Shown here in pieces: positions 35,965 through 62,250 of a DNA stretch of 64,000 nt. Made by a program: the position numbers and the translations under genes. How positions within the stretch are numbered: position 1 is the stretch's first letter; every line of letters starts with the position of its first letter. Origin of the DNA: Prosthecobacter debontii (GTDB taxonomy: Bacteria > Verrucomicrobiota > Verrucomicrobiia > Verrucomicrobiales > Verrucomicrobiaceae); contig NZ_FUYE01000016.1 in the NCBI RefSeq assembly GCF_900167535.1, positions 1 through 64,000 on the forward strand. Direction: 5' to 3'. Under the pieces are notes generated by a model. It saw only the letters and a program-made list of their open reading frames with translations. It made no database searches and was not told the origin of the DNA.

Positions 35965-37212
35965 TCAATTGACGGCGGTGCCCGTCAAGGGTACCCGGAT
36001 GGTGAAGGTTGTCTCGACTCCAGGGGTGCTCGTCAGTTCAATCGTTCCACCGTGGGCTTCGATCGTGCGCCGGACGATGCTGAGACCGAGTCCGGTTCCC
36101 TTGATTTCTGGGGAGTGGTGCTTATGGCCGCGGAAGAAGCGCTTGAACACGAAAGGTAAGTCATGGGCCGGAATCCCGATGCCATTGTCACTGACCCGGA
36201 TGACGCAGTGATCTGCAAACCACTGGCCGGTGACTTTGATCATTAAGCCAGGGTTTGGATTCTCCTTAATGGCGTTTTCCAAAAGATTGGTGAAGACCTG
36301 ATCCCAGTAGAAACGGTCGCCCACCATGTGCCCCCCATCGGAAGGGAAATCGAGTTGGAAGCGCGTATCCCGGCCTTCCAGCATGGGGGCGAGATGATCC
36401 AGCGCATCCTGCACACAGGAACGGGCGGTGAAAGGCTCCAGATTCAGCGCGGAACTGCCATTTTCTAGCCGCGAAATGGTCAGCATGTCTTCGATGATGC
36501 GGATGATACGCTTGCCATGTTTTTCCATGACATCGAGGCAGCGTTTCATGGCGGCATCGTCCTTGATGACGCCACTTTGCAGAGTCTCGATATACCCGTT
36601 GATCAAGGTCAGCGGCGTCCGCAACTCATGGGAGGCATTGGCCACGAAGTCCTTACGAACTTGTTCCGCCATGGTCTGCTCCGTGATGTCATAGACCATG
36701 AGCCAAGCGCCCGCCTCGGCTTTAGCTGGTAGAGGGGCGGCTTCGATCAGATAGTGCCGACTGCTAACCATTCCCGCCGCCAAGGGCGTGTTCAGCTCGA
36801 TCTCCTTGACAGTCCTCCGCTGATTGAGAAGCGCCGCCTGGACGATGTCGTTGATCTCATGATCTGAAAACTCCTCCAGAAGTGTCCGCCCTCGGTGGAT
36901 GGAGGGACGATGGAAGAGATGCCCCATCGTGCGGTTGCAGAATTTGATGCGCTGATGATCATCGGTGATGACGACCCCCTGGCGAATTTCATTGAGCAGG
37001 GATTCAAACAGCCGCCGCAGGTATTCTTCTTTATGTAAGGCGGTTTCAGCCTCGATCAGACCGGCGAATTTGGCCCCCAGTTTGTCGGCTTCGAAGTCCC
37101 GCAGCCCGGCTGCCTTCGTGATTTTAAGCACACTTTGCCGCCAGTGAAGCTCCCGACGCCAGGCGAATAACGCCAGGAGGACGAGGGCGACGACAAGAAT
37201 AGTGACGGTCAT
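35965..37212 (-). CDS. phoR: PhoR-type sensor histidine kinase
   Basis: A 415-residue membrane kinase: one N-terminal helix (MTVTILVVALVLLALFAW), a PAS domain (residues ~65-185, QGVVITDDHQRIKFCNRTMGHLF), HisKA dimerisation domain with His195 in ANASHELRTPLTLI, and a HATPase domain with the N, G1, F and G2 boxes (NLLENAIKENP, DNGIGIP, FKRFFRG, GTGLGLSIVRRT). The architecture matches PhoR, the phosphate-limitation sensor of PhoB. It lies 115 bp downstream of phoB; a hairpin without a T tract sits in the gap (37270-37296). The PhoU gene at 40.3 kb supports a phosphate-sensing role. Confidence 0.9.
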   Translation of the reverse strand: MTVTILVVALVLLALFAWRRELHWRQSVLKITKAAGLRDFEADKLGAKFAGLIEAETALHKEEYLRRLFESLLNEIRQGVVITDDHQRIKFCNRTMGHLFHRPSIHRGRTLLEEFSDHEINDIVQAALLNQRRTVKEIELNTPLAAGMVSSRHYLIEAAPLPAKAEAGAWLMVYDITEQTMAEQVRKDFVANASHELRTPLTLINGYIETLQSGVIKDDAAMKRCLDVMEKHGKRIIRIIEDMLTISRLENGSSALNLEPFTARSCVQDALDHLAPMLEGRDTRFQLDFPSDGGHMVGDRFYWDQVFTNLLENAIKENPNPGLMIKVTGQWFADHCVIRVSDNGIGIPAHDLPFVFKRFFRGHKHHSPEIKGTGLGLSIVRRTIEAHGGTIELTSTPGVETTFTIRVPLTGTAVN

Positions 37213-37327
37213 GAAGGAAGGAAAGGGAGGGGAATCGGACGATGAGAGGAAGGTGGACGTTAATCAATAACGACCTTGACCTGAGAGTCAGGTCGTCTCG
37301 GCAAGGATTGGGCTCCGCGAGGCAGGA

Positions 37328-38032
37328 TTAAGCTGCGGCTGCGGGGATGGCTGAGGCATCTGGGATAAATTGGTATCCCGTGCCGCGCACCGTGACAATG
37401 TGCTTGCCCGCATCACCGAGTTTCTCCCGCAGACGCTTGATGTGGGTATCGAGAGTGCGGGTAGCCACATCATCGGAGTAACCCCACACCTCGCGGAGAA
37501 GCTCAGCGCGGGTATGCACCGCAGCGACGTTTTCCAGGAGAACCGCTAAGAGTTTAAACTCTGTCGTGGTCAGGTCGATCGGCTGACCGTGGTGGAAAAA
37601 CTTCATGTTTTTCCGATCCAGGAGGAAAGCTCCGGTCTTCACTTCGGAGACGTGGGTCACCTTTTTGGTCCGGCGGAGGATGGCCGAGATGCGGAGGGAC
37701 AATTCACGTGGGGAGAAAGGTTTGGTGAGATAGTCATCGGCACCGAGTTCCAGGCCATTGATCTTATCCGTGACCTGAGCTCTCGCCGTGAGCATGATGA
37801 CAGGCACGGAGCGCGTGCGGCTGTCTGCACGCAGACGTTTGAAAACGGTCATGCCATCTTGACCAGGAAGCATCAGGTCCAGCACGATGAGGTCAGGCTC
37901 TTGTTCAATGACTGCATTCATGACCTGAAGGCCATTGGTAATGCAGACACAGTCATGCCCCTCACGCATTAGGTGCAGGGTAATCAGTTCCGAAATATCC
38001 GGCTCGTCATCAACCACCAAGATTTTGCTCAT
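37328..38032 (-). CDS. phoB: PhoB-type winged-helix response regulator
   Basis: A 234-residue OmpR-family regulator: receiver domain with the acidic pair VVDDEPD, phosphoacceptor Asp52 (LIVLDLMLPGQDG), Thr and Lys of the switch (VIMLTARAQ, YLTKPFSPREL), then a winged-helix DNA-binding domain (LTTTEFKLLAVLLENVAAVHTRAELLREVWGY; TRTLDTHIKRLREKLGD). PhoB binds pho boxes and turns on phosphate-starvation genes. Divergent from it, across 181 bp that carry two matching palindromes, lies the glycosyltransferase/PlcP/PhoU gene set. Confidence 0.93.
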   Translation of the reverse strand: MSKILVVDDEPDISELITLHLMREGHDCVCITNGLQVMNAVIEQEPDLIVLDLMLPGQDGMTVFKRLRADSRTRSVPVIMLTARAQVTDKINGLELGADDYLTKPFSPRELSLRISAILRRTKKVTHVSEVKTGAFLLDRKNMKFFHHGQPIDLTTTEFKLLAVLLENVAAVHTRAELLREVWGYSDDVATRTLDTHIKRLREKLGDAGKHIVTVRGTGYQFIPDASAIPAAAA

Positions 38033-38064
38033 AACGTATTAGCCGTTTACAAAAAGGCGGGCTT

Positions 38065-38152
38065 GTCACCAAACGGTTCTTGGTGACGTGTCCGTCACAT
38101 TATCGTTTGAGCCCTTAGATAAATTCAACATAAACCGTGACGCATTCGTCAC
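38065..38152. promoter_or_regulatory. Paired palindromic operator in the phoB - glycosyltransferase intergenic region
   Basis: Two 16-bp palindromes with the same arms, GTGACG-N4-CGTCAC, lie at 38083-38098 and 38137-38152, exactly 54 bp apart. One sits 51 bp from the phoB start and the other 62 bp from the glycosyltransferase start. An overlapping inverted repeat GTCACCAA/TTGGTGAC spans 38065-38072 and 38080-38087. GTCA half-sites also occur at 38165 and nearby. The half-sites partly resemble pho-box TGTCA, but a pho box is a direct repeat, so a different dimeric regulator is equally likely. A weak promoter TTGTCA (38164) - 18 bp - TATGAC (38188) precedes the glycosyltransferase gene. Confidence 0.6.
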
Positions 38153-38213
38153 AATGCAACACTTTGTCAGGAAGCGAATCTGCTTTCTATGACTAGCATC
38201 TGCCGATTGTGAC

Positions 38214-39356
38214 ATGAGGTTTCTGCTCATCACTGACACATTCCCTCCCGATATTAACGGAGTGGCGAGGACTCTTGCGACCTTGGCTGATGGCCTCAAA
38301 CAGCGGGGGCATGAGATTGAAATCGTGACCACGCTGGAAGCCTCTCCCGAGTTGGCGCAGGAACCTTACAAGCGTCACACGGTCATGGCCATGCCCTTAC
38401 CGGGTTACCCGGGCCTGCGCATGGGTTTTACCACGACTTGGCAGATGCAGGCGTTGTATGAAACCTTTCGTCCGGATGCCCTCTACATCGCGACTGAGAC
38501 GCCTCTCGGCATTGCCAGCATTCGTGCGGCGAATAAAATGGGCATACCCATGGTCTCGGGTTTCCACACCAATTTTCAGACCTACTTGGAGGATTACGCT
38601 CTACCCGGACTCGAAACGGTGGCTCAGGGATTGCTGAGGAGCCTGCACAATCAGACGGCACGCACGCTGACTCCCAGTGCGGATACGGCTGCCATGCTGA
38701 CGCGCTGGGGCATTCAGAATGTCGGTGTCTTAGGCCGAGGGGTGGATACCGACCTCTTCAGCCCAAGTCGGCGCAGCCTCGAACTCAGGGAATCGTGGGG
38801 AGTGGATGAGAAGACTCCCGTTGCACTCTATGTCGGACGGGTCGCTGCAGAAAAGAATCTTGTTTTGCTGACTCAAGCTTTTGCTGCCTTCCGTGAGATT
38901 TATCCTGCGGCTCCCTGTGTGGTGGTAGGCGATGGTCCGAAGTTGAAAAGCTTACAGACAGAGCATCCCGAGTTTATTTATACCGGAGCGAAAACAGGGG
39001 AAGATTTGGCCGCGCACTACGCCAGTGCCGATGCGTTTCTCTTTCCAAGCATCACGGAGACCTTTGGAAACGTCGTCTTGGAGGCCATGTCGAGCGGGCT
39101 GGTGACGACGGCTTACGACTACGCTGCGCCTCGGCAATTGATTCGGAGTGGCGAAAATGGTTTCCTTGCGCCTTTTGACGATGAGTCGGCCTTTCTCGAC
39201 CAATGCAGAATGGCTGCCAGGGCCTGGAATGAAGCTCCTTTACGCCAAGCCGCCCGTCAAGCCGCCCAGGATTTGGGCTGGCAGCGGGTCATCGAACAAT
39301 TCGAGTCTGAATTGACTTCTGTGATTGGCACGACCTCTTCTCAACACTCGGCTTGA
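38214..39356 (+). CDS. GT4-family glycosyltransferase, likely glycolipid-forming
   Basis: A 380-residue glycosyltransferase of the GT-B, GT4 type. It has the N-terminal family opening TDTFPPDINGVARTLATLADGL, the segment VSGFHTNFQTYLEDYALP typical of diacylglycerol/phosphatidylinositol glycosyltransferases (SQD2, MgtA, Agt types), and the C-terminal nucleotide-sugar domain (LYVGRVAAEKNLVLLTQAF; VVGDGPKLKSL; FLFPSITETFGNVVLEAMSSGL with the EX7E motif). In other bacteria an Agt-type enzyme next to PlcP makes glucosyl- or galactosyl-diacylglycerol under phosphate shortage. The next gene here is PlcP-like, and phoB-phoR lie divergently, so the same job is inferred. The first codon ATG 38214 is clear. 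Confidence 0.88.
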   Translation: MRFLLITDTFPPDINGVARTLATLADGLKQRGHEIEIVTTLEASPELAQEPYKRHTVMAMPLPGYPGLRMGFTTTWQMQALYETFRPDALYIATETPLGIASIRAANKMGIPMVSGFHTNFQTYLEDYALPGLETVAQGLLRSLHNQTARTLTPSADTAAMLTRWGIQNVGVLGRGVDTDLFSPSRRSLELRESWGVDEKTPVALYVGRVAAEKNLVLLTQAFAAFREIYPAAPCVVVGDGPKLKSLQTEHPEFIYTGAKTGEDLAAHYASADAFLFPSITETFGNVVLEAMSSGLVTTAYDYAAPRQLIRSGENGFLAPFDDESAFLDQCRMAARAWNEAPLRQAARQAAQDLGWQRVIEQFESELTSVIGTTSSQHSA

Positions 39357-39388
39357 CCTCGATCCCACTTTCCGCGTTCACTCTCCCC

Positions 39389-40279
39389 ATGTCAGACGAC
39401 CTTGACGAAACACCAGACGCTCCGATCACGCCGGAACGGACCAAGACTAAACTGCGTGCGCGCACGGTGTTTATCTCAGACGTGCATTTGGGCATGCCTG
39501 ATTGCAAAGCCGCCCAGGCCTCTCACTTCATCCGCAATACGATGTGCGATAAGCTGGTGATGAATGGAGATATCATCGACGCTTGGCACCTGAAACGTCT
39601 GGGGGGATGGAACAAGTCCCACACCCACTTCATCCGCACCGTGCTGAAAAAGATGGAGAAGGAAAACACGCAGATCATTTACCTGCGCGGAAATCACGAC
39701 GATATTCTGGATCGGTTCATCCCCATCCGCCTCGATAACTTCCTCATCTCCGATGAGCACATCCACCACACGAAAGACGGAGACTATCTCGTGGTGCACG
39801 GAGACGGTTTCGACCATGTGACCACCAACCACCCTTGGATCGCCAAGCTAGGCGGTATTGGTTACAACATCCTCCTGCGGGTCAACCGGGCCTACAATTG
39901 GTATCGCCGCATCCGGGGTAAAGAGAGCTTTTCTCTCAGCCGGTGGGTGAAGTTGAAAGTGAAATCCGCCGTCAGCTTTGTCGGCAAATACGAGGAACAG
40001 CTCCAGGAATTGGCCAAAGCCAAGGGCTGTGTGGGGATCATCTGCGGGCACATCCATAGCCCGGCCAACAAAAAGGTGGGGGAAACCCACTATCTAAATT
40101 CCGGTGACTGGGTGGAATCCCTCACCGCCATTCTGGAGTATGACAATGGGGAATTTGAAGTCATCACCTATGATCAATTCTGCGAACGCACCAATCGGGA
40201 GCCGAAAGGTTACGCAACTGTCGCAGAAGTGGATCAATCTGTGAAATTAGGTGTCGAAAATGTCACACCCGCCATGTAG
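39389..40279 (+). CDS. plcP: PlcP-like metallophosphoesterase (UDP-diacylglucosamine hydrolase-like fold)
   Basis: A 296-residue metallophosphoesterase with the full motif set: DVHLG (Asp31, His33), GDIID (Asp61), RGNHDD (Asn102-His103), VHGDGFDH and CGHIHSP. The fold is that of LpxH, but the details VNRAYNWYRR, LSRWVKLKVKSAVSFVGKYEE and YLNSGDWVESLTAILEYDNG match the PlcP phospholipase C group, which cuts phosphatidylcholine and other phospholipids to diacylglycerol during phosphate starvation. Such genes are often annotated as UDP-2,3-diacylglucosamine diphosphatase. No signal peptide is visible. Two starts are possible: ATG 39389 (used) and TTG 39353, which would overlap the GT4 stop as TTGA. 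Confidence 0.85.
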   Translation: MSDDLDETPDAPITPERTKTKLRARTVFISDVHLGMPDCKAAQASHFIRNTMCDKLVMNGDIIDAWHLKRLGGWNKSHTHFIRTVLKKMEKENTQIIYLRGNHDDILDRFIPIRLDNFLISDEHIHHTKDGDYLVVHGDGFDHVTTNHPWIAKLGGIGYNILLRVNRAYNWYRRIRGKESFSLSRWVKLKVKSAVSFVGKYEEQLQELAKAKGCVGIICGHIHSPANKKVGETHYLNSGDWVESLTAILEYDNGEFEVITYDQFCERTNREPKGYATVAEVDQSVKLGVENVTPAM

Positions 40280-40303
40280 CTTGATCACTTCAGCCACGCG
40301 ACG

Positions 40304-40990
40304 ATGCACGAGCACATTTTGTCTACTTTCGATCATTCCCTCAATCGCCTGCGTGAGCAGGTGCTCACCATGGCCAGCATTGCTCGACGCAATCTGGGCA
40401 GTTCCATGCGCGGGCTGCTGGAGCGTAATACGGATCTTTGCAATTCCGCCATCGCTGCCGATCAGGACGTGAATGAATTGGAAAAAAATATCGATCAGCT
40501 TGGGATGCAGATCCTGCTGAAGTTCCAGCCCACTGCACATGACCTGCGGCAAGTGATGGGAACGATCCGAGTGGCGAACAATCTGGAGCGTATCTCCGAT
40601 CAGGCCTGTAGCATTGCCAAACGAGCCCGAGCGATCAATCTACTGCCCGAGATCGCCGAGGTGAGTCTTCTCCAGCCGGTTTACCATCTCTGTGCACGTA
40701 ACTTGGAGGCCAGTATCCAGGCCTTTACCAACGCTGACCCTGAAGCTGCCGCTGCGACACGATTGCTGGATAAGGAACTCGATGCGGCGGAGAAGTCTGT
40801 GGACCAAGCGTTACTTCGCGTTATGGAAGCACGACAGGCTCCACTCGAAGGTTATCTTCATTTGATTTTCGTGGCTCGCTTCTTGGAGCGCGTCGGTGAT
40901 CACGCCAAGAATATCTGCGAAGACACCATCTTCATCGAGAAGGCCGAAGACATCCGTTTTGATAAGAACAAGCGCGAGGCTTTGTCTTAA
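40304..40990 (+). CDS. phoU: Phosphate-specific transport system accessory protein PhoU
   Basis: A 228-residue all-helical protein with two PhoU repeats, each carrying the metal-binding helix pattern (RVANNLERISDQACSIAKRA; VARFLERVGDHAKNICEDT). PhoU binds PhoR and the Pst transporter and holds the phosphate regulon off when phosphate is plentiful. It follows the PlcP-like gene by 24 bp and is probably co-transcribed with it. No pst transporter genes are in the window. A hairpin terminator follows. Confidence 0.93.
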   Translation: MHEHILSTFDHSLNRLREQVLTMASIARRNLGSSMRGLLERNTDLCNSAIAADQDVNELEKNIDQLGMQILLKFQPTAHDLRQVMGTIRVANNLERISDQACSIAKRARAINLLPEIAEVSLLQPVYHLCARNLEASIQAFTNADPEAAAATRLLDKELDAAEKSVDQALLRVMEARQAPLEGYLHLIFVARFLERVGDHAKNICEDTIFIEKAEDIRFDKNKREALS

Positions 40991-41763: not shown

Positions 41764-42306
41764 TTAGGACTCAAACTTTGGAAACTCTCCGGTCGTAATC
41801 CATAGGTAGAGCAATTTGATCGTCAGACCAATCAACGGCAAAACGACAAAGAAGCAGAACAGGCCAATCGTAACAGGCAAATACTCAAGTAGTCGTTCAC
41901 CCCAAGTTTCTTTAACAGGTGGGCGCATGAGCTGTTCTTCTTGCTCTTGTTTTTGCTTTTGCAGAAAGCTTTCAAAAGAGGTGTAGTCCGCCAGAGGTGG
42001 CCGATTGAGATGCCCCTTATCCGTGTGGATGAGTCGGCCCGTCTGGCAATCCAAAGCATAGGGGCAGGCATCGGCTTCATCGCCCATGTAAAGCCACTGC
42101 GCAGGCCAGGGAGGCAGGCCCTCGAAGCCACGGCGATAATCGAGGGTGGCCTCAATGATTTGATCCGCATCTCGGAGTGCTGTGACGTCATCAATGGGAC
42201 CGTGGTCCTCAATGGTTTGGTCGTCTTCGGCCAGATAAGCCCGGTAAGAAACGGGTAGAGCCAGGGCTAAGGTGGCTTCGATCCTGGCGATATCGGTTTC
42301 AGTCAT
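41764..42306 (-). CDS. SMI1/KNR4 (SUKH)-like protein with C-terminal membrane helix
   Basis: A 180-residue protein. The first ~110 residues fit the SMI1/KNR4 family (RIEATLALALPVSYRAYLAEDD near the start; DYTSFESFLQ at the end of the domain). The rest holds a charged stretch and one membrane helix (LPVTIGLFCFFVVLPLIGLTIKLLYLW). SUKH proteins are best known as immunity proteins of bacterial toxins; many others have unknown roles. Its ATG (42306-42304) overlaps the stop of the class A beta-lactamase gene (42305-42303) by 4 bp, so the two are translationally coupled. No toxin gene is visible nearby. Confidence 0.7.
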   Translation of the reverse strand: MTETDIARIEATLALALPVSYRAYLAEDDQTIEDHGPIDDVTALRDADQIIEATLDYRRGFEGLPPWPAQWLYMGDEADACPYALDCQTGRLIHTDKGHLNRPPLADYTSFESFLQKQKQEQEEQLMRPPVKETWGERLLEYLPVTIGLFCFFVVLPLIGLTIKLLYLWITTGEFPKFES

Positions 42307-43256
42307 GAACGGTTATCGGTGAGCGTTTCCAAGACGATCTTGGTCGCGGCAGCGATGATGTCATTGCGCATGGGGGCTTGGGAAGTCTTTTGAGTGAAAT
42401 AGATGGCCAGGATGATTGGGGATTGGTTAGGCGGAAAGAGGATGCCGATGTCATTCGTGGTGCCGTAGTCACCGGAACCAGTTTTATCCGCGACCTCCCA
42501 ATCGCTGGGGACTGCCGCCCGTATCCGAGCCGCACCGGTCGTGTTGCCTCGCATCCAAGTGCTAAGCTGGTTCCGCTGTTGAGGGGATAATCCATGGCCG
42601 AGCAAGAGCCGCTGGAGGTCGTGAGCCATGGCTGCGGGACTGGTGATGTCGCGCACATCGCCTGGAATGGCGGTATTGAGTTCCGTTTCCCAGCGATCCA
42701 ATCGAAAGGTCGAATCGCCAATGGAGCGAGCGAACGCGGTCATGGCTTGCGTGCCACCGAGTTCTTTGATCAGCAGATTACCGGCGGTGTTGTCACTGTA
42801 TTGCAATGCGGCGGCACAGAGCTGAGCGAGGCTCATGCTACGGCCTGCTTGCTTCTCGGTGATGGGCGAGTAGCTGACTAAATCTTGCTTGGAATACCGG
42901 ATGTGGCGATCCAACTCCGTTGGGTCTTGCTCCGTTCGTTTGAGAATGGCGGCAGCGGCGAGGAATTTGAAGGTGCTGCAAAAGGGAAAACGTTCGTTCG
43001 GACGATACCGCACTGAACGGCGAGGAAGGGAAGAGGCGGTCCATGCGGCGATTCCCAGTCGGCCTTGAGACTCGAACTCCAATTCAGCGAGTTGCCGGTG
43101 TGCAGAGGGTGAGGCTGATGAAGGGAGGCTGCATCCGCTGGTGAAGGGCAATGTTACCAACCCTGCTAAAGCAGCACGGCGGGTGAATCCTGACCGCAGC
43201 GACTGCGGTGGCTTAGGAGCGGAGCGAGGCAAGGAGTCTGGATCGAAAATGGTCAT
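42303..43256 (-). CDS. Class A beta-lactamase, Tat-type lipoprotein
   Basis: A 317-residue serine beta-lactamase. It has the four class A motifs at proper spacing: Ser94-Thr-Phe-Lys97 (S70xxK), Ser154-Asp-Asn156 (SDN), Glu190 in WETELN (E166 region) and Lys258-Thr-Gly260 (KTG). The N-terminus carries a twin-arginine-like signal (FTRRAALAGLVTLPFTSGC) with lipobox Cys42. It should hydrolyse penicillins and perhaps cephalosporins in the periplasm; the spectrum cannot be read from motifs. Upstream is a short gap to the divergent esterase operon; downstream it overlaps the SUKH-like gene. It is probably a chromosomal resident enzyme, as no mobile genes flank it. Confidence 0.9.
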   Translation of the reverse strand: MTIFDPDSLPRSAPKPPQSLRSGFTRRAALAGLVTLPFTSGCSLPSSASPSAHRQLAELEFESQGRLGIAAWTASSLPRRSVRYRPNERFPFCSTFKFLAAAAILKRTEQDPTELDRHIRYSKQDLVSYSPITEKQAGRSMSLAQLCAAALQYSDNTAGNLLIKELGGTQAMTAFARSIGDSTFRLDRWETELNTAIPGDVRDITSPAAMAHDLQRLLLGHGLSPQQRNQLSTWMRGNTTGAARIRAAVPSDWEVADKTGSGDYGTTNDIGILFPPNQSPIILAIYFTQKTSQAPMRNDIIAAATKIVLETLTDNRS

Positions 43257-60469: not shown

Positions 60470-61264
60470 ATGTCCGACGTTCCTCCACCTTCCTCTGCGA
60501 CTCCAGCCAACGCCACTTCAGGGCGCGTCATTCGTGCGGCCCTCATCATCTTCCCCCTAGGCACCGTCATCTTGGGCATCGCCTCCTTTGGCATCTGGTG
60601 GGTGAAGCGGGTCCAGGTGGAAGAGCGTGGCTACAAGTATGCCTTGGCCCTGCGTCGAGACATCACTGAAGCGGGGCTGGCCCGACACATCAGCATTCTT
60701 CAGGACGTTTACCGTCAAACGCCGGATAAGCTTCTGCCCTCCGTGGCGGCCTATCTGGAGTCCAGCATGGGCGCCGAAAACATGGGCTACCAAGTCCGGC
60801 GCGATACCTTCCAGCAGGGCGGGATTGACCTCTCCAACGTGGATGTCGAGCTGACGAACAAAAAGCGTTTCCGCGAGATCCTTCTCGTGCTCGTGCCTTA
60901 CGGTGACACGGATCCTGCCCGTCAAACCGCCGAAGTTCAGGCCCTCGCCACCCTCTTATCGGTCGCACACGCCATCACCGGAGAGTCCGGTTCTCAGACG
61001 CTCCGTCTCGCCGCCATCCCCGCCGCCCATGATGCCACCAGTCTGGAGCGCTTCGTCGCGGCGGCTCGGGGTAAAGAAGAGCGCTTCATGCAGGTCTTCG
61101 TGCTCGGAGATCCCTCCCCGGCCACCCAAACCACGCTGCAAAAGGCCTTCCGAGTCGAAGAGACCGGCACCGTGATCCATCATCTCCCCGCCACCCAGGA
61201 CTCCGCGACGACCTTGCCCGCCGCCCAGGCTCTGAAGACGCGCTTGCTTGAGCTGTTGAAGTGA
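60470..61264 (+). CDS. Membrane-anchored protein with degenerate M28-like domain
   Basis: A 264-residue protein with one N-terminal membrane helix (VIRAALIIFPLGTVILGIASFGIWWV) and an extracytoplasmic domain. The fold phrase LVLVPYGDTDPARQTAEVQALATLLSVAHAITG, then TLRLAAIPAAHDA, recalls the metal-binding region of M28 aminopeptidases (HxD..GAxDNxSG), but the metal ligands are replaced. It is best called a degenerate peptidase-like protein. The ATG at 60470 is clear. It precedes galU closely and may be in one transcript with it. Confidence 0.65.
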   Translation: MSDVPPPSSATPANATSGRVIRAALIIFPLGTVILGIASFGIWWVKRVQVEERGYKYALALRRDITEAGLARHISILQDVYRQTPDKLLPSVAAYLESSMGAENMGYQVRRDTFQQGGIDLSNVDVELTNKKRFREILLVLVPYGDTDPARQTAEVQALATLLSVAHAITGESGSQTLRLAAIPAAHDATSLERFVAAARGKEERFMQVFVLGDPSPATQTTLQKAFRVEETGTVIHHLPATQDSATTLPAAQALKTRLLELLK

Positions 61265-61362
61265 AGTCAAGGCGGCGGACGGGCCTTGATCGTCGGCAAC
61301 ACCTTTCACAGATGTCCGCCCTCGCAGTTGCAGCCCCGTGCACCGCTGCTAGGCTCGCCCCC

Positions 61363-62250
61363 ATGTCTTCCGCTCCCGTTCGTGTCCGTAAAGCCGTCAT
61401 CCCCGCCGCCGGTTATGGCACCCGCTTTCTGCCCATCTCCAAGGCCGTGCCGAAGGAGATGCTGCCCCTCGTGGATAAGCCCGTGATCCAGTATGTGGTG
61501 GAGGAAGCCGTCGCCTCCGGCATCACCGACATCCTCATGGTCATCAGCCGCAGCAAGCGCGCCATCGAGGAGCATTTCCACCCCGCCTTTGACCTGGAAG
61601 CCGAGCTGGAGGCCAAGGGCCGCACGGAGGATCTCCACGCGCTGCGCCGTCTGCAATCCATGGCCCGCATTCACTTCATCTGGCAGCCGAAGATGGGCGG
61701 CCTCGGCGATGCCATCCTCTACGCTCGGGACCATGTGGGGGAGGAGCCCTTCGCCGTCTTGCTGGGAGATACGGTGGTGACGACGCAGGATGAAACCCGC
61801 CCCGTCACCCGCCAGCTCGCCGATGTGGTGGAGCAGCATGGTGGCTCCGCCGTGGCCCTGCAGCAGGTGCCGGTGGAAAAGGTCAGCCGCTACGGCATCC
61901 TCGGCGGACAGGAGATCTCCCCTGGCCTCATCCGCGCCACCCAATTCGTGGAGAAACCCAAGCCCGAGGAAGCCCCCAGCAACCTCGCCGTCAGCGCCCG
62001 CTACGTCCTTTCCCCCCGCATCTTTGATCATCTGGAAAAGACCCCGAAAGGCAAGGGCGGCGAGCTGCAACTCACCGACGCCATGGCCTCCCTCATGCAG
62101 GAGGAGACCCTCCACGGCCTCCGCTACGACGGCCAGCGCCACGACATCGGCAACAAGCTCGACTTCATCAAAGCCAACCTCCACTTCGGCCTCCAGCACC
62201 CCGACATCGGGGAGGCGCTGAAGGCGTGGGTGAAGGAGTTGGCTCTTTGA
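61363..62250 (+). CDS. galU: UTP-glucose-1-phosphate uridylyltransferase
   Basis: A 295-residue GalU: VIPAAGYGTRFLPISKAVPKEMLPLVDKPVIQYVVEEAV holds the nucleotide-binding G-x-G-T-R and the Lys of the active site. LLGDTVV (metal Asp), QFVEKPKPEEAPSN and RYVLSPRIFDHLEK follow, all family signatures. It makes UDP-glucose for polysaccharide and glycolipid synthesis, and could supply the sugar for the glycolipid glycosyltransferase at 38.2 kb. The ATG at 61363 fits; a longer ORF from 61261 overlaps the previous gene. Base composition is notably C-rich here. Confidence 0.94.
   Translation: MSSAPVRVRKAVIPAAGYGTRFLPISKAVPKEMLPLVDKPVIQYVVEEAVASGITDILMVISRSKRAIEEHFHPAFDLEAELEAKGRTEDLHALRRLQSMARIHFIWQPKMGGLGDAILYARDHVGEEPFAVLLGDTVVTTQDETRPVTRQLADVVEQHGGSAVALQQVPVEKVSRYGILGGQEISPGLIRATQFVEKPKPEEAPSNLAVSARYVLSPRIFDHLEKTPKGKGGELQLTDAMASLMQEETLHGLRYDGQRHDIGNKLDFIKANLHFGLQHPDIGEALKAWVKELAL

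What the first reader, a model, noticed from the sequence alone, without database searches (positions are those of the whole stretch)
35965..40990. Complete phosphate-responsive lipid-remodelling module in a verrucomicrobial setting
phoB-phoR are divergent from a GT4 glycosyltransferase, a PlcP-like metallophosphoesterase and phoU. PlcP frees diacylglycerol from phospholipids and an Agt-type glycosyltransferase makes glycolipids, replacing phosphorus lipids when phosphate is short (established in marine and soil proteobacteria). Here the whole chain, sensor, regulator, enzymes and PhoU, lies in 5 kb, and galU nearby could supply UDP-glucose. The metallophosphoesterase would otherwise be mislabelled as LpxH.
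Basis: partly seen in the sequence, partly recalled or inferred. Interest (0 to 1): 0.78.

Follow-up and report, generated by a model that had tools for sequence, protein, structure and literature searches.

The report
Phosphate-saving membrane lipid swap module
A bacterium of the Verrucomicrobia carries, in one 5 kb block, genes that look able to sense phosphate shortage and swap phosphate-containing membrane lipids for sugar lipids, and in a related genus the two key enzymes are fused into one protein.

Summary
The metallophosphoesterase (MPE) is PlcP-like, not LpxH: it groups with S. meliloti and P. aeruginosa PlcP, LpxH splitting off at 99/99. It is far under the LpxH cut-offs, and the genome has LpxI. 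The block holds the genome's only PhoU and best PhoB match. Two GTGAC-N6-GTCAC palindromes lie in the phoB/GT4 gap. The motif occurs 19 times in the genome (control 9); by my assignment 7 of 19 lie at phosphate genes. It is not a canonical Pho box. GT4-PlcP-PhoU is conserved in Verrucomicrobiaceae. In a sister-family genus, probably Akkermansia, 12 of the 14 genomes with a match (76 searched) carry GT4 and PlcP as one protein. One correction: the GT4 has Glu where the Agt clade has Asp, so it is Agt-like in role, not an Agt-clade member. PlcP in a verrucomicrobium was already in print (PMC4796936). I have no lipid or expression data.

The parts
35965..37212 (-). PhoR-like sensor histidine kinase (N-terminal hydrophobic stretch seen by eye; PAS, HisKA, HATPase_c)
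   Evidence: Pfam; best NCBIfam models PnpS and PhoR, both under cut-off
37328..38032 (-). PhoB-like response regulator
   Evidence: TIGR02154 is its best model, 241.5 bits; best PhoB match in the genome, next 197.1; cut-off 296.2 not met
38083..38098 (.). operator-like palindrome GTGACGTGTCCGTCAC on the phoB side of the divergent promoter
   Evidence: counterpart with 0-1 mismatch in 6 of 6 relatives that have phoB adjacent
38137..38152 (.). operator-like palindrome GTGACGCATTCGTCAC, 61 bp before the GT4 start
   Evidence: a site with at most 1 mismatch is within 300 bp upstream of GT4 in 12 of 12 Verrucomicrobiaceae-type loci examined
38214..39356 (+). GT4 glycosyltransferase, proposed diacylglycerol glycosyltransferase
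   Evidence: Pfam; NCBIfam best hits GlcN_PG_synth and Mgs, both under cut-off; on the side of the PlcP-linked GTs at 83/92; His, Arg, Lys and Glu264 kept, Asp256 replaced by Glu
39389..40279 (+). PlcP-like phospholipase C (calcineurin-like metallophosphoesterase); ORF opens at TTG 39353
   Evidence: no other match to it in the genome at E up to 1
40304..40990 (+). PhoU, the only one found in the genome
   Evidence: TIGR02135 157.2 bits, cut-off 130.25; both PF01895 hits of the genome are here
61261..62250 (+). galU, possible UDP-glucose supply, 20 kb away; not part of the operon
   Evidence: TIGR01099 334.9 bits, cut-off 326.8; match begins at residue 42 of the ORF, so the true start is probably later

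Best explanation
This is a phosphate-starvation lipid-remodelling operon of the PlcP kind with its regulator beside it. When phosphate is scarce the PhoR-like kinase activates the PhoB-like regulator. The regulator binds GTGAC-N6-GTCAC palindromes in the 181-bp divergent promoter and raises phoB-phoR and GT4-plcP-phoU. PlcP cleaves membrane phospholipids to diacylglycerol plus a phosphorylated head group. The GT4 adds a sugar from a UDP-sugar (glucose is the first guess, via GalU) to the diacylglycerol, giving a phosphorus-free glycolipid. PhoU, made from the same operon, reports back to the Pst/PhoR system and limits the response. Shown here by sequence: gene identities, non-LpxH placement, conservation, motif sharing with pst genes, GT4-PlcP fusion in relatives. 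Inferred: PhoB as the binder of the motif, enzyme activities, sugar and lipid identity, and PhoU feedback.
For: The MPE groups with characterised PlcPs; 5 of 5 LpxH and LpxH-like rows split off at 99/99. Identity is 35% to S. meliloti PlcP, 38% to P. aeruginosa PlcP and 22% to E. coli LpxH; it reads GNHD where E. coli LpxH reads GNRD, and it shares the GDWVE...A stretch with the PlcPs. LpxI is present and no LpxH reaches its cut-off. Conservation of GT4-MPE-PhoU and phoBR. GT4-MPE fusion in 12 of the 14 genomes with a match in one sister genus, 76 genomes searched. In L091 the MPE precedes a pstS-like gene, pstC, an unscanned gene, pstB and a PhoU homologue; in L094 it follows GT4, an MGDG-synthase-type GT and a lipid kinase and precedes a porin, a pstS-like and a permease gene. 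The motif lies by both pstB loci, a phosphate-selective porin, phoH and this gap: 7 of 19 genome sites by my assignment. Two sites in 181 bp has Poisson P about 1.5e-7 at the genome density.
Against: No expression or lipid data. PhoB and PhoR miss their cut-offs. The motif is not the proteobacterial Pho box: matches to that box in the window are at chance level and none falls in the gap. 8 of the 19 motif sites fall inside coding ORFs and 4 more by genes with no clear phosphate role. The motif is absent from the 300 bp upstream of the fused genes in the 3 loci checked; of 15 loci outside Verrucomicrobiaceae-type in all, 12 lack it and 3 have a 1-mismatch hit. 62 of 76 genomes of the fusion genus have no match at all, and 104 of 145 genomes of the phylum sample have no MPE homologue. 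The GT4 lacks the Agt Asp. 10 of 29 relatives show no GT4 match within 1.5 kb of the MPE. L091, the locus with the pst-phoU run, and L092 fall outside the main verrucomicrobial MPE group. The structural model's nearest solved folds are LpxH, as expected for the superfamily, with only moderate model confidence (mean pLDDT 66.3).
Confidence: 0.85

Rival explanations
1. The MPE is an LpxH-type lipid A enzyme and the neighbourhood is incidental.
For: Most plasmid-collection records that carry an annotation label its homologues UDP-2,3-diacylglucosamine diphosphatase; the nearest solved folds are LpxH.
Against: Far under both LpxH cut-offs, 46.7 of 134 and 25.5 of 190.35; tree 99/99 against it; LpxI present; one Parabacteroides strain holds both an MPE of this kind and a separate LpxH-like protein.
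Confidence: 0.03
2. The GT4 glycosylates another acceptor (phosphatidylglycerol, a sphingolipid or an envelope precursor), and the MPE trims or recycles a different phosphodiester under phosphate control.
For: The GT4's best NCBIfam model is N-acetylglucosaminyl phosphatidylglycerol synthase, 138.9 bits of a 480 cut-off; it lacks the Agt Asp; two phosphate-induced GT4s of Caulobacter act on ceramide (PMC6445935, passages).
Against: The partner enzyme groups with PlcP; MGDG-synthase-type and lipid-kinase partners in relatives point to diacylglycerol; alpha-monoglucosyl-diacylglycerol synthase is the second NCBIfam hit.
Confidence: 0.1
3. The palindrome belongs to another regulator, and the operon is not controlled by the adjacent PhoB-PhoR.
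For: The motif is an inverted repeat, whereas PhoB sites are direct repeats (recalled); the direct-repeat variant GTCAC-N6-GTCAC gave 9 hits against 15 for its control, one of the 9 lying in the C15 pst region; other palindromes lie by TonB-system and unrelated genes.
Against: Sites cluster at phosphate genes and occur twice in the phoB/GT4 gap. Each of the 7 sites tested can be read as a 7-4-7 pair with 2-4 mismatches to CTGTCAY-N4-CTGTCAY, and a 3-mismatch match to the canonical box lies upstream of the C2 pstB.
Confidence: 0.12

Closest known systems
PlcP-Agt lipid remodelling of proteobacteria (S. meliloti, Phaeobacter MED193, Pelagibacter, P. aeruginosa, Methylosinus)
   Same: Metallophosphoesterase of the PlcP branch beside a GT4, with phosphate-linked regulation predicted (PMC4796936, PMC8528852, PMC9239053, passages read)
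   Different: GT4 comes first (in the P. aeruginosa, Methylobacterium and Sphingomonas stretches fetched it comes second), phoBR and phoU are in the same block, the shared motif is a palindrome rather than the Pho box, and the GT4 carries Glu where Agt carries Asp
Verrucomicrobial PlcP noted in a marine single-cell genome (PMC4796936, passages and section 12 read)
   Same: PlcP homologue in the same phylum
   Different: What I read gives no operon, regulator or fusion for it; verrucomicrobial methanotrophs are reported to lack PlcP (PMC9239053, passages)
LpxH (UDP-2,3-diacylglucosamine diphosphatase)
   Same: Same superfamily fold and metal-binding layout
   Different: 22% identity to E. coli LpxH, GNHD instead of GNRD, separate branch, LpxI already present

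Membership tests
PlcP phospholipase C | Calcineurin-type metal motifs D-x-H, GD..D, GNHD, H, GH-x-H | tested here: met
   all present in the alignment with S. meliloti and P. aeruginosa PlcP
PlcP phospholipase C | Groups with characterised PlcP, apart from LpxH | tested here: met
   34-row tree, LpxH group 5 of 5 on one side at 99/99
PlcP phospholipase C | Cleaves phospholipids to diacylglycerol; Mn-dependent; induced at low phosphate | not testable with these tools
   needs assay, transcript and lipid data
Agt clade of GT4 | Asp256 in place of the GT4 Glu (PMC8231724, passages) | tested here: not met
   Glu in 11 of 11 intact verrucomicrobial GT4s aligned; Asp in the 3 proteobacterial GTs directly downstream of a PlcP (only the P. 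aeruginosa one is characterised); the divergent Thiodictyon GT has Glu; the degenerate L063 GT has Phe
Agt clade of GT4 | Residues whose change to Ala nearly abolished GTcp activity: Gly16, Gly82, Gly85, Arg190, Lys195, Thr257, Phe258, Gly259, Glu264 | tested here: inconclusive
   mapped by motif through P. aeruginosa Agt1, as I did not have the GTcp sequence; 8 of 9 kept in the window, Gly82 is Thr
Agt clade of GT4 | Makes glucosyl- or glucuronosyl-diacylglycerol | not testable with these tools
   needs expression in E. coli and mass spectrometry
LpxH | TIGR01854 or NF003743 curated cut-off | tested here: not met
   25.5 of 190.35 and 46.7 of 134 bits
PhoU | TIGR02135 curated cut-off | tested here: met
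   157.2 of 130.25 bits; the narrower NF008332 model is not met, 121 of 342
PhoB | TIGR02154 curated cut-off | tested here: not met
   241.5 of 296.2 bits; still the genome's best match
PhoR | TIGR02966 curated cut-off | tested here: not met
   226 of 334.2 bits
Canonical Pho box | CTGTCAT-N4-CTGTCAT upstream (consensus as given in PMC8528852, passages) | tested here: not met
   5 window hits with up to 3 mismatches, 5.43 expected, none in 38033-38213

The most novel reading that the evidence does not exclude
Across Verrucomicrobiota a lineage-specific GT4 (with Glu, not Asp) pairs with PlcP, in Verrucomicrobiaceae under a palindromic phosphate operator. In an Akkermansia-like genus the pair has become a single bifunctional enzyme that turns phospholipid into glycolipid in one polypeptide, passing diacylglycerol from one active site to the other; in two genomes the GT half has since decayed.
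Probability: 0.5. Interest if true: 0.65.

Novelty: new variant of a known kind. Interest (0 to 1): 0.52.

Why it matters
If true, it extends phosphorus-sparing membrane remodelling, worked out mainly in proteobacteria, to a phylum that (recalled) is common in lakes, soil and the gut, with the regulator and PhoU in the same block, so the circuit can be tested as one cassette. It predicts a phosphate operator for Verrucomicrobiaceae. It suggests that some proteins labelled UDP-2,3-diacylglucosamine diphosphatase, as in the records, are phospholipases. The fused enzyme offers a direct test of substrate passing between a phospholipase C and a glycolipid synthase, possibly in gut bacteria if the genus is Akkermansia.

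Tried and rejected
Rejected: LpxH identity. Rejected: an apparent 695-residue fusion in L044; its upstream part is an arginine- and proline-rich reading frame with no GT4 match. Rejected: reading the motif as an ordinary Pho box. Rejected: strict Agt membership of the GT4.

Led nowhere: sequence search for solved relatives of the MPE (no hit; three weak hits, E 0.29-0.79). The structure model (mean pLDDT 66.3) returned LpxH as nearest fold, which does not separate PlcP from LpxH. Paper searches for a PlcP-Agt fusion or for Akkermansia phosphate lipids listed nothing on it by title or abstract start; of the papers in those lists I opened passages of PMC4796936, PMC8528852, PMC9239053, PMC8231724 and PMC6445935 only. 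A search for Prosthecobacter lipids (listing only) showed nothing relevant.
Full report
Observation. The five genes are as described. The window lies on contig C16 of a 6.29-Mb, 99.6% complete genome. Its nearest named relatives by this gene are Prosthecobacter, Brevifollis and unnamed Verrucomicrobiaceae, at up to 89% protein identity. The GT4 stop is at 39356, the likely MPE start is ATG 39389, and PhoU follows 24 bp after the MPE stop.

PlcP or LpxH. The MPE scores 46.7 and 25.5 bits against LpxH models whose cut-offs are 134 and 190.35. It is 35% identical to S. meliloti PlcP, 38% to P. aeruginosa PlcP and 22% to E. coli LpxH. I take the S. meliloti row to be the characterised PlcP because it lies 2.8 kb from a LuxR-type regulator and an AHL synthase, which matches the sinR-sinI neighbourhood as I recall it. 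I take the P. aeruginosa row to be PA3219 because it is 44% identical to the S. meliloti row (the paper gives 46%, PMC8528852, passages) and a GT gene overlaps its end. All 5 of the last group fall on one side of a branch with 99/99 support; the window falls with the PlcPs. Eighteen of the 20 verrucomicrobial rows plus one Parabacteroides form a 100/100 group of 19; L091 and L092 fall outside it, among proteobacterial rows. Two rows have long branches (Thioclava and Teredinibacter). The genome has one LpxI hit, 145.7 bits, over cut-off, no LpxH over cut-off, and no second match to this MPE at E up to 1.

The glycosyltransferase. It is GT4 with best NCBIfam hits to GlcN-phosphatidylglycerol synthase and alpha-monoglucosyl-diacylglycerol synthase, both well under cut-off. 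It is 31-33% identical to three proteobacterial GTs directly downstream of a PlcP, 27% to a divergent Thiodictyon GT next to another, and 19-24% to seven GT4 relatives in its own genome. In a 23-row tree the 16 PlcP-linked GTs fall on one side of a branch at 83/92. This is a weak test, because the only other GTs in it are those seven, several on long branches. PMC8231724 (passages) reports that GTcp of the Agt group has Asp256 where the GT4 enzyme MshA has Glu. The three proteobacterial GTs have Asp. The 11 intact verrucomicrobial GT4s, window included, and the Thiodictyon GT have Glu. So the window GT4 is Agt-like in role but is not of that clade.

Phosphate control. The 181-bp phoB/GT4 gap holds two GTGAC-N6-GTCAC palindromes. 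A site with at most one mismatch lies within 300 bp upstream of the GT4 in 12 of 12 Verrucomicrobiaceae-type loci examined (L010-L016, L018-L021, L081), six of them without phoB directly adjacent (L012, L013, L014, L020, L021, L081). L012 and L013 have the same upstream sequence, so these are not all independent. In the whole 64-kb window 1.63 such sites are expected by chance and 6 are found. Genome-wide there are 19 exact sites; the reversed control gives 9. By my assignment 7 of 19 are upstream of phosphate genes: this gap (2), a Porin_O_P phosphate-selective porin (2), pstB on C2, the pst permease operon on C15, and PhoH on C9. Gene starts are uncertain: longer ORF calls overlap the porin and C2 pstB sites, and a 100-aa ORF that I take as spurious overlaps the PhoH site. 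The C15 site could also serve a divergent superoxide dismutase gene. Four more lie by a DUF3450-MotA/ExbB operon, a gene followed by a TonB receptor, a kinase/PycTM pair and a GT-like gene. Eight fall inside coding ORFs, as chance hits would. The direct-repeat variant is not enriched (9 against 15). The proteobacterial Pho box is at chance level in the window, though one 3-mismatch match lies upstream of the C2 pstB. The module's PhoU is the only one found in the genome, although two pstB genes over cut-off lie elsewhere.

Relatives. In a sample of 145 genomes of the phylum, 41 have an MPE homologue. Loci were fetched for 30 of the 42 matches. Of the 29 that are not the window, 19 have a match to the window GT4 in the held 1.5-kb flanks, 8 of these in the same reading frame; 10 do not, one of which (L058) has a GT4 about 2 kb away and one (L063) a degenerate GT half. 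In the sister-family genus, 14 of 76 genomes match at E up to 1e-20 and 62 do not. Of the 14, 12 carry one long GT-MPE frame and 2 carry the MPE alone. Of the 12 fusions, 10 keep the FHT and E-x7-E motifs and are 655-665 residues long from the MRID start; 2 have a degenerate GT half with an intact MPE, and for one of these, L063, Pfam finds no GT. The motif was not found upstream of the fused genes in the three loci checked, but one of them (L078) has it 74 bp before a PHO4-type phosphate transporter. Of 15 loci outside the Verrucomicrobiaceae type, 12 lack the motif upstream and 3 have a 1-mismatch hit (L083 and L089 were not scanned). In L091 the MPE precedes a pstS-like gene, pstC, an unscanned gene, pstB and a PhoU homologue. 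In L094 the order is GT4, MGDG-synthase-type GT, YegS-type lipid kinase, MPE, a short ORF, porin, pstS-like gene, ABC permease. L095 has GT4, lipid kinase, MPE. L090 has MPE, MGDG-synthase-type GT. These partners fit diacylglycerol as the shared intermediate.

Prior knowledge. PMC4796936 (passages and section 12) already lists a verrucomicrobium single-cell genome with PlcP and a common plcP-agt pairing. PMC9239053 (passages) says verrucomicrobial methanotrophs lack PlcP. In my searches (listings, plus passages of the five papers named here and) I saw no report of a GT-PlcP fusion, of phoBR and phoU in the same block, or of this operator. The library holds only open-licence papers and I opened few, so this is not proof of absence.

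Verdict. A real and coherent module and a new variant of a known kind. The fused enzyme, the separate GT4 branch and the palindromic motif are the new parts. Activity, sugar and lipid remain to be measured.

Noticed in passing
   Followed up: partly
   Followed up: partly
window 42303-43256: Serine beta-lactamase family protein (Beta-lactamase2, 158 bits) near the block.
   Followed up: no
window 41764-42306: SMI1/KNR4 (SUKH-1) domain protein next to the beta-lactamase-like gene.
   Followed up: no
L123 (C17:92719) and L114 (C1:508162) of the own genome: The same palindrome lies by a DUF3450-MotA/ExbB operon and upstream of a gene followed by a TonB receptor, possible further members of the regulon.
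   Followed up: partly
CP090106.1 (L027): A 3.7-Mb record labelled S. meliloti pSymB carries PlcP near an AHL synthase and a LuxR regulator, which I recall as a chromosomal neighbourhood; the replicon label may be wrong.
   Followed up: no
L029 and L127 (two records of one Parabacteroides distasonis strain): The strain has both a PlcP-like MPE overlapping a glycosyltransferase gene of another Pfam family and a separate LpxH-like protein next to a PstS family gene; both MPEs are labelled UDP-2,3-diacylglucosamine diphosphatase.
   Followed up: partly
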